This document shows positions 4,042 through 13,104 of a stretch of 32,220 bases of DNA, piece by piece. The first letter of the stretch is position 1. Each line of letters starts with the position of its first letter. The notes under the pieces are model-generated. The model worked only from the letters and a program-made list of their open reading frames with translations. It did not search any database and was not told the origin of the DNA. Source of the DNA: an uncultured Porphyromonadaceae bacterium (lineage in GTDB: Bacteria > Bacteroidota > Bacteroidia > Bacteroidales > Muribaculaceae); the NCBI GenBank assembly GCA_947174915.1, contig CAMWKV010000007.1:1-32220 (forward strand). The letters are read 5' to 3'. Made by a program: the position numbers and the translations under genes.

Positions 4042-4734
4042 CTAAGGCATCTTATTCTTTAGTTTGTCCAGTTCCTTTTTGCAGAACGATAAAATCACCT
4101 TACCCAAGAGAAATTTTTCAGTAGAGTACAAGCTCGGTTTACCGGCCATATCCCGTTGAAAATTAAGCTCAGAGTTTGTGATTGCATTTTCGAGTAACAC
4201 AGGATGCAACTGGAAGTTAAAACCACCGGTTATTTTAGCATCCACAAATTGTTTGAAGGTCACATACTGTTCCACATCCTCTGCTTTAATTGAGTCATAG
4301 AGATGATAATAGAGCCATAATTCAAAACACGGATTACACTGAGCTACACACCATGCCGAATATGGCTTGACTTCATCGTATTCATCTGATATTGAATTAT
4401 TTTTACGGCTACAATACTCTCTGAGAACATCTATCTTACCGTGTTCCTCCCATTGGTCGGTATCTATAGCGAACCATATCTGATCCTGTTGCATATAGTC
4501 AATGATATATCGACAGGAATCACTGAAGAATATACGTTCGGCCAACTCAAGTAATTTAACGGGATCGGTATGCCCGTCTTCCGATGGCACTGCTATTATC
4601 TCAAGATTCGAGGACAGACCCTCAAAGAACTTATAATAATCCGGCTCAGTACCATTGCCCTCGCATATGACGTAAATCTTGTTGGCATTCTTGGAGGGAG
4701 CCAGTTTATGATAATCTTTTCTTCGAGCTATCAT
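4042..4734 (-). CDS. RloB-like (AbiLii-type) TOPRIM nuclease-like protein
   Basis: A 230-residue protein of the RloB type (RloB Pfam family), which pairs with an ABC/SMC-like ATPase in restriction-linked and abortive-infection loci (rloAB, AbiL). Signatures seen are VICEGNGTEPDYY near residue 22 (the glutamate of a TOPRIM-like fold), FAIDTDQWE near 90 (the DxD pair) and QCNPCFELWLYYHL near 132, the family hallmark. It starts one base after the ATPase stop codon (TGA-T-ATG), so the two are almost certainly translationally coupled. In known systems the partner ATPase is thought to sense phage and the TOPRIM part to cut nucleic acid; for this pair that is inference. All key motifs look intact. 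Confidence 0.88.
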   Translation of the reverse strand: MIARRKDYHKLAPSKNANKIYVICEGNGTEPDYYKFFEGLSSNLEIIAVPSEDGHTDPVKLLELAERIFFSDSCRYIIDYMQQDQIWFAIDTDQWEEHGKIDVLREYCSRKNNSISDEYDEVKPYSAWCVAQCNPCFELWLYYHLYDSIKAEDVEQYVTFKQFVDAKITGGFNFQLHPVLLENAITNSELNFQRDMAGKPSLYSTEKFLLGKVILSFCKKELDKLKNKMP

Positions 4735-4735
4735 A

Positions 4736-6061
4736 TCACCAGTTCAAGTCTGAAAGATTCGACAAAAATGGAATAGCGCCGTAACGGCCATGGAGATAGC
4801 CATTCTCTATATTTGCCGTCTTGTGGACATTATAGTCACTCAGTGGATAGAGTTGAGTAGCCTGTTCCACATCCTTTTGAGCGAACCATATCTCGTCCGG
4901 ACGAAATATTGACTGATCAAGTAGACAGCTCTCGTGAGTTGTAAAGATAATCTGCCCCTTGGCAGAAGTATTTTCCGAAATCCTGCTCATGATAGTCTTT
5001 ATCATAATAGGATGAATGCTGCGCTCTATCTCGTCGACGATAAAAATCCTGCTCTCTTTCAATATCCAGTAAAGTAAGGGAAGATACTCGATGAGCCGAC
5101 GCGTACCATCTGATTCATCCATCACCTGCATCTCTATATCTTTACCATCACGGGTGCGATGGACGGTAACTATCGACTTCAGAAATATAGTGTCATTCTC
5201 ACAGACTATATTAGAAAGATAGCTATACATGTTCTTCTGGAACATTACAGGTTCGCCGGGATTTTCTCTGGCAGCTTCGATGGCACGTGACAAGCCGGGG
5301 TCGCCCTTGGCATCTTCAATGTCCACCACTTCTTTTTTTACATCAAGGCGATAGATACCGGTCTGAAATTTCGGGAATACAGAATTGATATAGTCTTTGA
5401 ATTCAGCATCCGAGTCCATATAGTGCGAGATATACCCCATCTTCATATCAGGAAGCACCACCTGAAGATCTATCAGCCAACGGTAAGCCTCCGCTATCGG
5501 CGGGAACTCCTGAGGATAATACTTGCCGAAAAAAGCCAGCAAGAGCATATCGGGCCGCACAATACGCGTCAATACATCGGAGAACGTTTTATTATCCTCC
5601 TCTGAAATCTCGGACGGGGAGAGGGATATTTCGTTGCCTTTGCGCACAAAGAGTGGGATATCGTCCTTCTTCTCACATAGATAGAGTTCTTCCTGCTCAA
5701 TCTGCGTGCGAGTAAATACGATATGATAGTAATATATCGATTCGTTGACGAAGAACTCTATCGCCAACTCCGACGGCTTCATTCTGCTCTCGGCATCAAA
5801 CTTGAAAAACAAATCATCTGCGAAATAAACATCACCCAATTTTTCTTCAAGCATCATCTGCTTTAACAGATATATACAGCGGAGGAGATTACTTTTTCCC
5901 GCACCGTTGGCACCATATACGGCACTCATTCGCAAGGCCGTCACATGACCGCATTTTACCTTATGCCAGTCATGACTATGACTCTTACTGGAGGGAAAGG
6001 TGTTGAACTCTACAGCATCCTTGAACGATAGAATATTTTCAGCGGCAAATCGTAATAGCAT
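4736..6061 (-). CDS. RloA-like (AbiLi-type) AAA_15/21 ATPase
   Basis: A 441-residue ABC/SMC-like ATPase, partner of the RloB-like protein encoded one base downstream. Walker A is YGANGAGKSNLL (residues 49-60), a signature-like segment SDGTRRLIEYLPLLYW precedes Walker B IFIVDEIERSIHP (about 340), and a switch histidine follows in FTTHESCLLD (about 375). The N-terminal LRFAAENILSFKDA is typical of the OLD/AAA_15 group. The long insert between Walker A and the signature probably forms the coiled-coil or dimer domain. A strong promoter lies directly upstream, divergent from the XRE-CoiA operon. Role in phage defence is inferred from the pairing with RloB. The family members AriA (PARIS) and OLD ATPases are related alternatives, but the RloB partner argues for AbiL/RloAB. 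Confidence 0.87.
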   Translation of the reverse strand: MLLRFAAENILSFKDAVEFNTFPSSKSHSHDWHKVKCGHVTALRMSAVYGANGAGKSNLLRCIYLLKQMMLEEKLGDVYFADDLFFKFDAESRMKPSELAIEFFVNESIYYYHIVFTRTQIEQEELYLCEKKDDIPLFVRKGNEISLSPSEISEEDNKTFSDVLTRIVRPDMLLLAFFGKYYPQEFPPIAEAYRWLIDLQVVLPDMKMGYISHYMDSDAEFKDYINSVFPKFQTGIYRLDVKKEVVDIEDAKGDPGLSRAIEAARENPGEPVMFQKNMYSYLSNIVCENDTIFLKSIVTVHRTRDGKDIEMQVMDESDGTRRLIEYLPLLYWILKESRIFIVDEIERSIHPIMIKTIMSRISENTSAKGQIIFTTHESCLLDQSIFRPDEIWFAQKDVEQATQLYPLSDYNVHKTANIENGYLHGRYGAIPFLSNLSDLNW

Positions 6062-6088
6062 AAATCATATTCCGTTTAAACTTCACCG

Positions 6089-6120
6089 CAAAGATAATCA
6101 TTAATCCCATATAAGCAAAA
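6089..6120 (-). promoter_or_regulatory. Promoter of the rloA-rloB-like operon
   Basis: On the minus strand, TTTTG, 19 bases, then TATCTTTG match the Bacteroidetes -33/-7 consensus. The -7 box lies 27 bases upstream of the ATPase ATG. Confidence 0.75.
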
Positions 6121-6214
6121 TTAAATTCAATTACTCAAAAGAATCCGTTAATTTTTAACGCAACAAACCTAATATCTCTCCTATATCAGATTATTGTACA
6201 CACGATATAAATAG

Positions 6215-6269
6215 ATTTATATATAAATTTATAATTGTTATATTTGCCAATTACAATATTTATATATAA
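6215..6269. promoter_or_regulatory. Candidate operator pair in the divergent defence promoter region
   Basis: A perfect 14-base palindrome ATTTATATATAAAT (6215-6228) recurs as ATTTATATATAA (6258-6269), 43 bases further on, close to four helical turns. The second copy overlaps the -7 box of the XRE gene. This fits an autoregulatory site for the XRE protein, but the sequence is very AT-rich, so chance is possible. Confidence 0.4.
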
Positions 6270-6274
6270 CTTTG
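6243..6274 (+). promoter_or_regulatory. Promoter of the XRE-CoiA-like operon
   Basis: TTTG (6243), 20 bases, then TAACTTTG (6267-6274) match the Bacteroidetes consensus exactly. The ATG follows 43 bases downstream. Confidence 0.75.
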
Positions 6275-6317
6275 CAGCAAAATAAAAATATCAACGTTCC
6301 GGTCACCGTAGAACAAC

Positions 6318-6806
6318 ATGAATTTCATGAAAAAAATAACTTTGCAGCCCACACCTAATTCCAAAGCTACTATTTTGAGCAACAAAGTAGTAGAAGTAAC
6401 GGCGCCCGATGGCGAAGTATTCCAAGTGCTATGCCAAGCAGGACAATATATCAGCGAAGCAACGCGCGACCACGAGTTATTCTTGATCGAGAGTATCTTT
6501 GACAATTGTTTTTCAGACGACAAAGAGCAGATGCTCAATAACATATGGAAAAATGCAATGTCAAACGAACTCTCCTTCATCGGAATAAGTCCCGGAGACA
6601 GGCAATGTGAACGAAGCCGTATCGGTGCCCGCATCAAACAGATACGAACAGAGCGAGGAATCGAAGCTCGCGACCTTGCCACTCTCGTGGGTATTGACCC
6701 CGCCAACTTAAGCCGAATAGAAAATGGGAAATACTCCGTCGGAATAGACATCCTGTCTAAGATTGCAGCCTCATTAGGTAAGAAAATTGACTTAATAGAT
6801 ATCTGA
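6318..6806 (+). CDS. XRE-family regulator with C-terminal helix-turn-helix
   Basis: A 162-residue protein. Residues about 100-160 form a classic XRE helix-turn-helix: IGARIKQIRTERGIEARDL, then VGIDPANLSRIENGKYSVGI, then ILSKIAASLGKKIDLI. The N-terminal 90 residues are not recognised; an antitoxin or sensor role is possible. An in-frame ATG three codons later (6327) is an alternative start. The stop is separated from the next ATG by one base (TGA-A-ATG), so it forms an operon with the CoiA-like gene and probably represses it. It faces the RloA/RloB-like pair across a 256-base AT-rich region with candidate operators. Motif recognition is firm; target and signal are unknown. Confidence 0.85.
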   Translation: MNFMKKITLQPTPNSKATILSNKVVEVTAPDGEVFQVLCQAGQYISEATRDHELFLIESIFDNCFSDDKEQMLNNIWKNAMSNELSFIGISPGDRQCERSRIGARIKQIRTERGIEARDLATLVGIDPANLSRIENGKYSVGIDILSKIAASLGKKIDLIDI

Positions 6807-6807
6807 A

Positions 6808-7902
6808 ATGACTAACCATTTACATGCCCTCAATCGGGATAATCACCTCATACACATAAACGACGCCCAAAAAGGAAAGGAACACAGCTATACTTGTCCC
6901 GCCTGTGGGGCACCTATGATACCTAAACAAGGTAAAAAACAAGCTTGGCACTTCGCACATAAAGCCGACAAGGAAAATTGCTGTGCCGAGACATATCTCT
7001 ACAAAGTAGCAAAGCTCCGCATTAAGCAGTGCTTTGAAGAATCCTCGTCCTTTATCATCAAACCCGCTCAACGAGTAATTTGTAATGTAGAAGACTGCCC
7101 TGTAGGCCGATTAAAGCCTTGTGAATGGGAAAAGGAAGGTTCTCCTATTAACTTGAAAGAGAACTATGATACATGCGTCATTGATGCAATGTCAGACAAA
7201 TTTCATGCAGATTTATTGATTGTGTCTAAATCAAATGAAAACATTCCTCCGATACTAATTAATATCTCAGTCTCCACTACATATTGTGAACCTTGTGCAG
7301 TAACAGACTATAAGAAAATAAATCTACATATCAGTAGTGAGGAAGATTTATTGGAAATAGTAGGCAAAGCGACCATAAGCGAAACTATCAAAGAACCTGA
7401 GCAAAGGAATCCCTACGACAACGATAATGAGGAATATGAAGAATCTGAGCTTGATGAAGATATATCAATCCCCACTATCTTCTATAACTTCGATGATACT
7501 CCAGTATTTGAAAGACCAGACGAAAAACATCAGGCATATAAACATAGTTGGTGGATTAAACCTAACTATGGGTATCAATCTGATGAACCATCTGTTTTTT
7601 ATGGGTCAGGACGGTGTTTATCCTCTAATATTTCAAGCATCGAAAACTCAGTATTCTGCATACAGGCAAGATATAAAATTAATCGTGATTTTGCATTTAA
7701 GATATTAGCTCAAATCAATATCGGAATTAGATACTGCCCTATGTGTGAATTCTATGAATGGAATCGCTGTACAGAAAACCCTCCTTGTCCTACATACGCA
7801 GACAAATATGAAGCACAAAAGTGTAAGTTTTTCAAACAAAAGATTGATAAAACAGAAGAAATCCCCGAATATAAGGTGTATATAAATGGAAAGCCGCGCT
7901 AA
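6808..7902 (+). CDS. CoiA-like zinc-ribbon / nuclease-like protein
   Basis: A 364-residue protein whose start resembles competence protein CoiA: a zinc-ribbon-like YTCPACGAPMIPK (residues about 29-41) followed by WHFAHKADKENC, and then ESYLYKVAK-like helices (ETYLYKVAKLRIKQ). CoiA-like proteins carry a PD-(D/E)xK-type nuclease domain. Here the segment FHADLLIV ... ILINISVS is in the expected place, but the usual acidic residue appears as Asn (INI for IEI), so activity is doubtful. The C-terminus has a cysteine cluster (CPMCEFYEWNRC ... PPC ... KC) that looks metal-binding. Base composition is clearly more AT-rich than the core neighbours. The last codon overlaps the stop of the opposite-strand gene by four bases. 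The role in this accessory block is unknown; defence or nucleic-acid processing is inference. Confidence 0.7.
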   Translation: MTNHLHALNRDNHLIHINDAQKGKEHSYTCPACGAPMIPKQGKKQAWHFAHKADKENCCAETYLYKVAKLRIKQCFEESSSFIIKPAQRVICNVEDCPVGRLKPCEWEKEGSPINLKENYDTCVIDAMSDKFHADLLIVSKSNENIPPILINISVSTTYCEPCAVTDYKKINLHISSEEDLLEIVGKATISETIKEPEQRNPYDNDNEEYEESELDEDISIPTIFYNFDDTPVFERPDEKHQAYKHSWWIKPNYGYQSDEPSVFYGSGRCLSSNISSIENSVFCIQARYKINRDFAFKILAQINIGIRYCPMCEFYEWNRCTENPPCPTYADKYEAQKCKFFKQKIDKTEEIPEYKVYINGKPR

Positions 7903-12618: not shown

Positions 12619-12690
12619 GGCCCATTCGTCTATCGGTTAGGACGCAAGATTTTCATTCTTGAAAGAGCAGTTCGATTCTGCTATGGGCTA
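12619..12690 (+). tRNA. tRNA-Glu (anticodon TTC), copy 1
   Basis: The 72-base sequence folds as a cloverleaf: acceptor GGCCCAT/ATGGGCT (with a G-U pair at the end), anticodon stem CAAGA/TCTTG with loop TTTTCAT (anticodon TTC), and T-arm AGCAG-TTCGATT-CTGCT. CCA is not encoded. It lies 38 bases upstream of rpsT. Confidence 0.95.
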
Positions 12691-12728
12691 CAAATAATAA
12701 AATAGCGAACACAACCGCCTCAAATAAT

Positions 12729-13028: not shown

Positions 13029-13100
13029 GGCCCATTCGTCTATCGGTTAGGACGCAAGATTTTCATTCTTGAAAGAGCAGTTCGATTCTGCTATGGGCTA
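13029..13100 (+). tRNA. tRNA-Glu (anticodon TTC), copy 2
   Basis: Identical over all 72 bases to the copy at 12619. The identity runs on for five more bases (CAAAT) downstream. No separate promoter is evident; it probably shares the transcript with copy 1 and rpsT, ending at the terminator just downstream. Confidence 0.95.
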
Positions 13101-13104
13101 CAAA

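What the first reader, a model, noticed from the sequence alone, without database searches (positions are those of the whole stretch)
4042..7902. Divergent defence-type cluster: RloA/RloB-like pair facing XRE-CoiA
An ATPase-TOPRIM pair of AbiL/RloAB type and an XRE-CoiA-like operon share one 256-base AT-rich regulatory region. The XRE protein could control both sides. The CoiA-like association with RloAB is not one I know.
Basis: partly seen in the sequence, partly recalled or inferred. Interest (0 to 1): 0.65.

Follow-up and report, generated by a model that had tools for sequence, protein, structure and literature searches.

The report
Repressor with swappable nucleases, beside RloAB
Two unrelated two-gene defence-type modules sit back to back here: an AbiL/RloAB pair, and a copy of a Bacteroidota cassette, not found described, in which one conserved repressor with its own operator and usually a conserved RNA leader precedes any of several exchangeable DNA-cutting enzymes.

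Summary
The four genes exist as described, but they are two independent pairs and not one system. RloAB (AbiL type) and XRE-CoiA each recur without the other: among 347 family genomes, 13 carry close RloB and about 26 carry full-length XRE; only the window genome carries both. One distant AbiL pair lies near an XRE-HNH pair elsewhere (G165). Each half of the 256-bp spacer has its own promoter and conserved elements. The XRE operator (6233-6252) is absent from 26 of 27 RloB loci (one weak hit). XRE control of RloAB is therefore not supported.

The stronger finding is the right half. In 80 Bacteroidota-wide loci, the same XRE usually stands directly in front of either a CoiA-type or an I-HmuI-like HNH nuclease, rarely others, with at least 9-10 supported partner changes. 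An operator precedes 74 of 75 and a covarying hairpin leader 65 of 75. Neighbours include type I R-M, GmrSD, OLD/UvrD, Cas12a and AbiL genes. I read it as a C-protein-like controller of exchangeable restriction-type nucleases (inferred, untested). The window copy looks decayed or repurposed: its leader is gone, and its CoiA alone of 36 lost Glu152, His157, Lys163 and Glu172.

The parts
4042..4734 (-). RloB/AbiLii-like TOPRIM protein (230 aa), E25-G26 and D91-x-D93 conserved
   Evidence: Pfam RloB 1.8e-18, PADLOC AbiLii 7e-17; invariant E25, G26, D91, D93 in 7 relatives
4736..6061 (-). RloA/AbiLi-like AAA ATPase (441 aa); Walker A GANGAGKS, Walker B-like FIVDEIE
   Evidence: PADLOC AbiLi 4e-75, AAA_21 1e-31; motifs read from the sequence
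6082..6096 (-). RloA -7 element and start of leader (TATCTTTGCGGTGAA), Bacteroidota-type promoter
   Evidence: same or near-same motif upstream of RloA in nearly all of 13 other RloA loci
6145..6161 (-). palindrome GCGTTAAAAATTAACGG upstream of RloA promoter, RloAB's own element
   Evidence: same element (exact to half-conserved) at about -90 to -100 in most RloA upstream regions
6233..6252 (+). predicted XRE operator AATTGTTATATTTGCCAATT; its TTTG overlaps the -33 box
   Evidence: exact match in window, 0.12 expected with 3 mismatches allowed; operator in 74 of 75 full-length XRE upstream regions, 0.5% in shuffles
6265..6274 (+). XRE -7 element TATAACTTTG
   Evidence: consensus TAnnTTTG at the usual distance from the operator in aligned loci
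6275..6317 (+). 5' leader of XRE mRNA; the family's conserved hairpin leader is absent here
   Evidence: no R1 model match in this interval, with filters off, nor in the genome
6318..6806 (+). XRE controller: ~95-aa N-terminal domain plus C-terminal Cro/C1-type HTH (residues 106-159)
   Evidence: HTH_3 1.3e-12; AlphaFold pLDDT 87, HTH resembles C.BclI, C.AhdI, HipB
6808..7902 (+). CoiA-type protein: zinc-ribbon CoiA_N plus predicted PD-(D/E)XK-like core; D135 kept, E152N, H157T, K163C, E172N, H65Y changed
   Evidence: CoiA_N 1e-10; residue tally over 36 family members

Best explanation
The locus is two independent defence-type cassettes placed back to back between trmD and dnaX. The left one is an AbiL/RloAB-type ATPase-TOPRIM pair under its own promoter. 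The right one is a member of a Bacteroidota-wide cassette in which an XRE controller is followed by one exchangeable nuclease. Proposed mechanism of the cassette: the XRE dimer binds the AATTG-N10-CAATT-type operator over the -33 box and represses its own operon, holding the nuclease at a low, safe level; the structured 5' leader, where present, tunes translation or stability of the same mRNA; the nuclease, which can be CoiA-type, I-HmuI-like HNH, or rarer types, cuts foreign DNA without a cognate methylase, as a solitary or type IV-like restriction enzyme does. Because the controller acts on its own promoter, unrelated nucleases can replace each other behind it. SHOWN by comparison: operon order, operator, leader, partner exchange, defence genes in several neighbourhoods. 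INFERRED: repression, nuclease activity, antiphage role. In the window the leader and the nuclease core residues are lost, so this copy is probably an inactive or repurposed member.
For: Independence: only the window genome has both close RloB and the XRE. XRE plus nuclease: 36 CoiA-type, 34 HNH and 4 CoiN partners among 86 non-redundant loci, gaps usually -14 to +26 bp. Partner exchange: CoiA label needs 16 changes and HNH 19; starred branches force at least 9 and 10. A remnant resembling the HNH partner of G328 lies between XRE and CoiA in G286. Operator in 74/75 upstream regions against 7/1500 shuffles. Leader in 65/75, stem covaries (15 double-changed cells, shuffled mean 5.5, 0/500). In genome-wide scans nearly all strong R1 hits lie directly before this XRE; one lies before an R-M operon (PF00145 methylase, Vsr, small HTH). 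Fold: HTH nearest ClgR, C.BclI, C.AhdI, HipB. Neighbours: HsdM/HsdS plus OLD/UvrD, GmrSD, Cas12a, Vsr, 5mC methylase, AbiL. A CoiA-domain protein is an antiphage system in E. coli (PMC9519451).
Against: No experiment; repression and DNA cutting are inferred. The CoiA model gave no confident PDB match (best E 0.19; weak hits to PD-(D/E)XK proteins such as SfsA and Cas4). The XRE model also aligns over its full length with the HicB antitoxin at low TM-score (0.37), which would suit a toxin-antitoxin reading. Some loci have no nuclease directly behind XRE (6 of 86). Ten of 75 lack the leader. Defence enrichment was counted by families matched, not as a formal test.
Confidence: 0.58

Rival explanations
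1. Type II toxin-antitoxin: the XRE is an antitoxin whose N-terminal domain binds and neutralises the downstream nuclease and whose HTH autoregulates.
For: Two-gene, often overlapping operon with XRE first; autoregulatory-type operator; full-length structural alignment with HicB antitoxins.
Against: The same XRE pairs with unrelated nucleases (CoiA-type, HNH_3, HNH_2) with many exchanges, which direct binding would make hard unless hyperpromiscuous; XRE also occurs upstream of a type I R-M operon or without a nuclease.
Confidence: 0.22
2. Selfish homing cassette: the nuclease spreads its own operon into DNA lacking it, and XRE limits damage.
For: The HNH partner matches the homing endonuclease I-HmuI (1u3e, 3e-8); cassettes occur on a plasmid, on viral contigs and near integrase- or relaxase-like genes.
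Against: Insertion neighbourhoods look different from locus to locus, and CoiA-type partners are not homing enzymes; defence genes recur nearby.
Confidence: 0.1
3. One reading: RloAB and XRE-CoiA form one four-gene system with XRE controlling both sides.
For: Back-to-back orientation and shared spacer; a distant AbiL pair near XRE-HNH in G165.
Against: Each pair recurs alone; separate conserved promoter elements; XRE operator absent at 26 of 27 RloB loci, one weak hit.
Confidence: 0.04
4. About the window copy only: its CoiA is a functional pseudoenzyme (DNA-binding or dominant-negative) rather than a decaying gene.
For: Full 364-aa frame without stops, zinc ribbon and other cysteines kept, operator and XRE intact; changes are substitutions, the aligned length is unchanged.
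Against: Leader lost too; no homologue with the same changes was found in 36 members; recent decay also leaves open frames.
Confidence: 0.35

Closest known systems
AbiL (AbiLi/AbiLii) of Lactococcus and RloA/RloB; PARIS AriAB
   Same: Two-gene ABC-type ATPase plus TOPRIM protein with conserved TOPRIM acidic residues and Walker motifs
   Different: Bacteroidota version with its own conserved promoter and palindrome; antiphage activity untested; AbiLii profile match is partial
C proteins (controllers) of type II restriction-modification systems, e.g. C.BclI, C.AhdI, C.Esp1396I
   Same: XRE HTH gene first in the operon, palindromic operator(s) over its own promoter, endonuclease directly downstream; HTH fold among the nearest to C.BclI and C.AhdI
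   Different: Extra ~95-aa N-terminal domain, no methyltransferase partner as a rule, interchangeable unrelated nucleases, structured mRNA leader
HicAB / HipBA / HigBA toxin-antitoxin systems
   Same: XRE-type HTH regulator in a two-gene operon with an effector; weak full-length HicB-like alignment
   Different: Partner is a 270-400 aa DNase-like protein, exchanged often; direct neutralisation not shown
CoiA-domain antiphage protein from the E. coli pangenome screen (Vassallo et al. 2022, PMC9519451)
   Same: A CoiA domain used in phage defence
   Different: No XRE-operator-leader cassette is described in the passages read; sequence relationship to it not tested

Membership tests
AbiL / RloAB (left pair) | Adjacent ATPase (AbiLi) and TOPRIM (AbiLii/RloB) genes matching the family profiles | tested here: met
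   PADLOC AbiLi 4e-75 and AbiLii 7e-17, Pfam RloB above its cut-off
AbiL / RloAB (left pair) | Conserved TOPRIM Glu and DxD | tested here: met
   E25, D91 and D93 invariant in 7 relatives
AbiL / RloAB (left pair) | Abortive infection activity | not testable with these tools
   needs phage assay
CoiA family (6808-7902) | CoiA_N zinc-ribbon domain above Pfam cut-off | tested here: met
   PF25164 41.4 bits, cut-off 26.3
CoiA family (6808-7902), active nuclease | Core residues D135, E152, H157, K163 conserved in this subfamily | tested here: not met
   only D135 kept; E152N, H157T, K163C, unique among 36
R-M controller (C protein) | XRE HTH upstream of an endonuclease gene with an operator over its own promoter | tested here: met
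   (operator by sequence only)
R-M controller (C protein) | Cognate DNA methyltransferase in the system | tested here: not met
   no methyltransferase among the four window genes and none as the usual partner; exceptions L292 (HsdM) and, for the leader alone, L305
R-M controller (C protein) | Binding to operator and activation/repression | not testable with these tools
   needs EMSA or reporter
Type II toxin-antitoxin | Direct neutralisation of a toxic partner by the XRE protein | not testable with these tools
   weak HicB-like fold match only

The most novel reading that the evidence does not exclude
A Bacteroidota-wide regulatory platform (operator, structured RNA leader, two-domain XRE) that serves as a plug-in socket for unrelated nucleases, with frequent partner replacement and occasional use in front of complete restriction-modification operons. 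The leader RNA or the XRE N-terminal domain would be a sensor that releases the nuclease upon invasion.
Probability: 0.35. Interest if true: 0.8.

Novelty: new variant of a known kind. Interest (0 to 1): 0.6.

Why it matters
It corrects a plausible but wrong four-gene system, and in its place points to a widespread cassette, present in named strains such as Phocaeicola vulgatus ATCC 8482 and Segatella baroniae B14, whose parts can be tested directly. Nucleases kept without a dedicated methylase pose an old question of how the host survives them; a common operator plus RNA leader in front of exchangeable nucleases makes that testable. An Rfam gathering-threshold search of six of the loci did not match the leader.

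Tried and rejected
Four-gene unit: rejected. A DNA alignment of leaders with one mistyped row (A3) was discarded and rebuilt from locus references as A4. Rfam gathering search of six loci found only tRNAs. Fold search for CoiA gave no confident match. A viral-contig scan with the CoiA alignment could not be run, and the RloB scan there found none. A leader pattern in viral contigs found nothing. Paper searches found no description of an XRE-CoiA or XRE-HNH cassette in Bacteroidota; subscription papers are not held. Compensating frameshifts as the cause of the CoiA changes: unlikely, the aligned segment has the same length as in the nearest relatives. Leader as a general Bacteroidota element: not supported, 2 hits in 327 phylum genomes at E <= 0.01, one directly before this XRE, though that scan used strict filters and so has low sensitivity.
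Full report
CHECK OF THE OBSERVATION. The four ORFs are real and intact. 4042-4734(-) is RloB/AbiLii-like and 4736-6061(-) AbiLi-like; 6318-6806(+) is an XRE protein with an unassigned N-terminal domain and 6808-7902(+) carries a CoiA_N zinc ribbon. The 256-bp gap is 74.2% AT against 50.2% for the window, and both pairs are AT-richer than the flanking trmD and dnaX genes, consistent with acquisition. In two same-genus genomes, G001 and G017, trmD and dnaX are separated by two or three other small genes, so this is a variable site.

ARE THE HALVES ONE SYSTEM? No. Among 118 relatives, RloAB occurs in G006, G053, G060 and G095 without the XRE, and XRE-CoiA occurs in G010, G046 and G069 without RloAB. 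In 347 family genomes, 13 carry close RloB and about 26 carry full-length XRE; only the window genome has both. The one partial exception is G165, where a distant AbiLi/AbiLii pair (PADLOC 7e-57 and 4e-11) follows an XRE-HNH pair by about 0.6 kb (same locus as L226).

TWO SEPARATE CONTROL REGIONS. RloA relatives share TATCTTTGC(C/G)GTGAA at about -32 to -35 and, at about -90 to -100, a CCGTTAAAATTTAACGG-type palindrome, although neither is exact in every relative. In the window these lie at 6082-6096 and 6145-6161. The XRE operator lies at 6233-6252 and its -7 box at 6265-6274. Of 27 RloB loci, 26 had no XRE-operator match with up to 3 mismatches; the distant RloB locus L179 had one weak match. 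Control of RloAB by XRE is therefore not supported.

THE XRE-NUCLEASE CASSETTE. A scan of the genome collection (84,980 species) with the XRE alignment returned 80 loci, nearly all Bacteroidota, including Phocaeicola vulgatus ATCC 8482, Segatella baroniae, Robiginitalea, Flavobacterium caeni, Chryseobacterium and one Balneolaceae (the best 80 of 198 are kept). Together with the family set, 86 non-redundant XREs give 36 CoiA-type, 34 HNH, 4 CoiN (a second CoiA-nuclease-like protein, by resemblance only), 2 'P232', 1 HNH2-like, 1 secreted-protein gene, 2 other and 6 without a partner. The HNH partner matches Pfam HNH_3 and the solved homing endonuclease I-HmuI, and its HNH residues are invariant or nearly so in 34 sequences. 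A Chryseobacterium plasmid and two viral contigs also carry XRE-HNH.

PARTNER EXCHANGE. On a maximum-likelihood XRE tree of 84 rows the CoiA label needs 16 changes and the HNH label 19; starred branches alone force at least 9 and 10. The bootstrap had not fully settled. In G286 a 52-aa open frame resembling the start of the 289-aa partner in G328 lies between XRE and CoiA, which looks like the remnant of a replaced partner.

OPERATOR AND LEADER. Of 75 full-length upstream regions, 74 carry the operator with at most 3 mismatches, against 7 of 1500 mononucleotide shuffles; 12 of 79 regions examined had two sites. Between promoter and start codon, 65 of 75 carry a conserved leader (AAAGTGGCGGCAACACTTTAAATACGGCA and related forms). 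On alignment A4 its stem shows 15 cells changed on both sides, against 5.5 shuffled (0 of 500), and loses pairing when slid. A loop-to-tail G-C pair changes to A-T in 5 of 40 class-1 leaders, with 5 others not forming a Watson-Crick pair, a hint of a tertiary pair only. Model R1 in 118 genomes gave its strong hits directly before this XRE (G046, G052, G010, G069, G058, and weakly G068), at a contig end in G009, and in G075 before an operon with a small HTH protein, Vsr and a 5mC methylase. One of two phylum-wide hits again lies directly before an XRE, followed by an HNH_2 nuclease. The window lacks the leader.

NEIGHBOURHOODS. Near the cassette lie HsdM/HsdS followed by OLD-like and UvrD genes (L292), GmrSD (L235, L257, L286), Cas12a (L287), Vsr or 5mC methylase (L257, L279), and the AbiL pair (L226). 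Nearest-neighbour proteins matched 148 PADLOC families in 134 proteins, versus 24 in 97 trmD-neighbourhood proteins. This is suggestive only: families are redundant and the control is rich in housekeeping genes.

THE WINDOW COPY. Aligning 36 CoiA-type partners, position 152 is Glu in 35, 157 His in 35, 163 Lys in 35, 172 Glu in 35 and 65 His in 35; the window protein is the single exception at each, while D135 and the zinc-ribbon residues C30, C33, H48, H51 and C58 are kept. The predicted strand-helix order fits a PD-(D/E)XK-like core with D135 and position 152 on separate strands, but fold searches were inconclusive. I infer that the window nuclease is inactive or repurposed.

MECHANISM AND LEVEL OF SUPPORT. 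By analogy with C proteins (HTH among the nearest to C.BclI and C.AhdI) I propose autorepression through the operator, leader-mediated tuning, and solitary restriction-type nuclease action. A toxin-antitoxin reading remains possible, because the XRE model also aligns weakly with HicB over its length. The frequent use of unrelated nucleases behind one XRE favours control at the promoter over direct neutralisation.

VERDICT. Observation confirmed; interpretation partly supported. The left half is a new member of a known kind; the right half belongs to a cassette that I could not find described, best rated a new variant of a known kind.

Noticed in passing
L150:1340-1498 (G286 C28): A short frame resembling the start of the HNH partner of G328 lies between XRE and CoiA, apparently a fossil of a replaced partner.
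   Followed up: partly
L305 (G075 C13), leader near 1501-1552 on the minus strand: The XRE-type leader precedes an operon with a ~130-aa protein, a small HTH protein, Vsr and a 5mC methyltransferase, without this XRE's operator.
   Followed up: partly
L287:7990-12323: An XRE-HNH cassette is followed by a Cas12a gene and a Cas4-like gene (the latter by eye only) in a Paludibacteraceae bacterium.
   Followed up: partly
L058:7257-7700, L061:8418-8906, L222, L238, L246, L249, L258, L273, L278: A small, apparently secreted protein (about 130-160 aa, '...LDTQTGRIEQVQW...') recurs next to XRE-nuclease loci.
   Followed up: no
window 6072-6080 and 6145-6161: RloA's leader holds a half-site related to the upstream palindrome, suggesting a separate unknown regulator of RloAB.
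   Followed up: partly
window 12619-12691 and 13029-13101: Two tRNA-Glu(TTC) genes in tandem.
   Followed up: no
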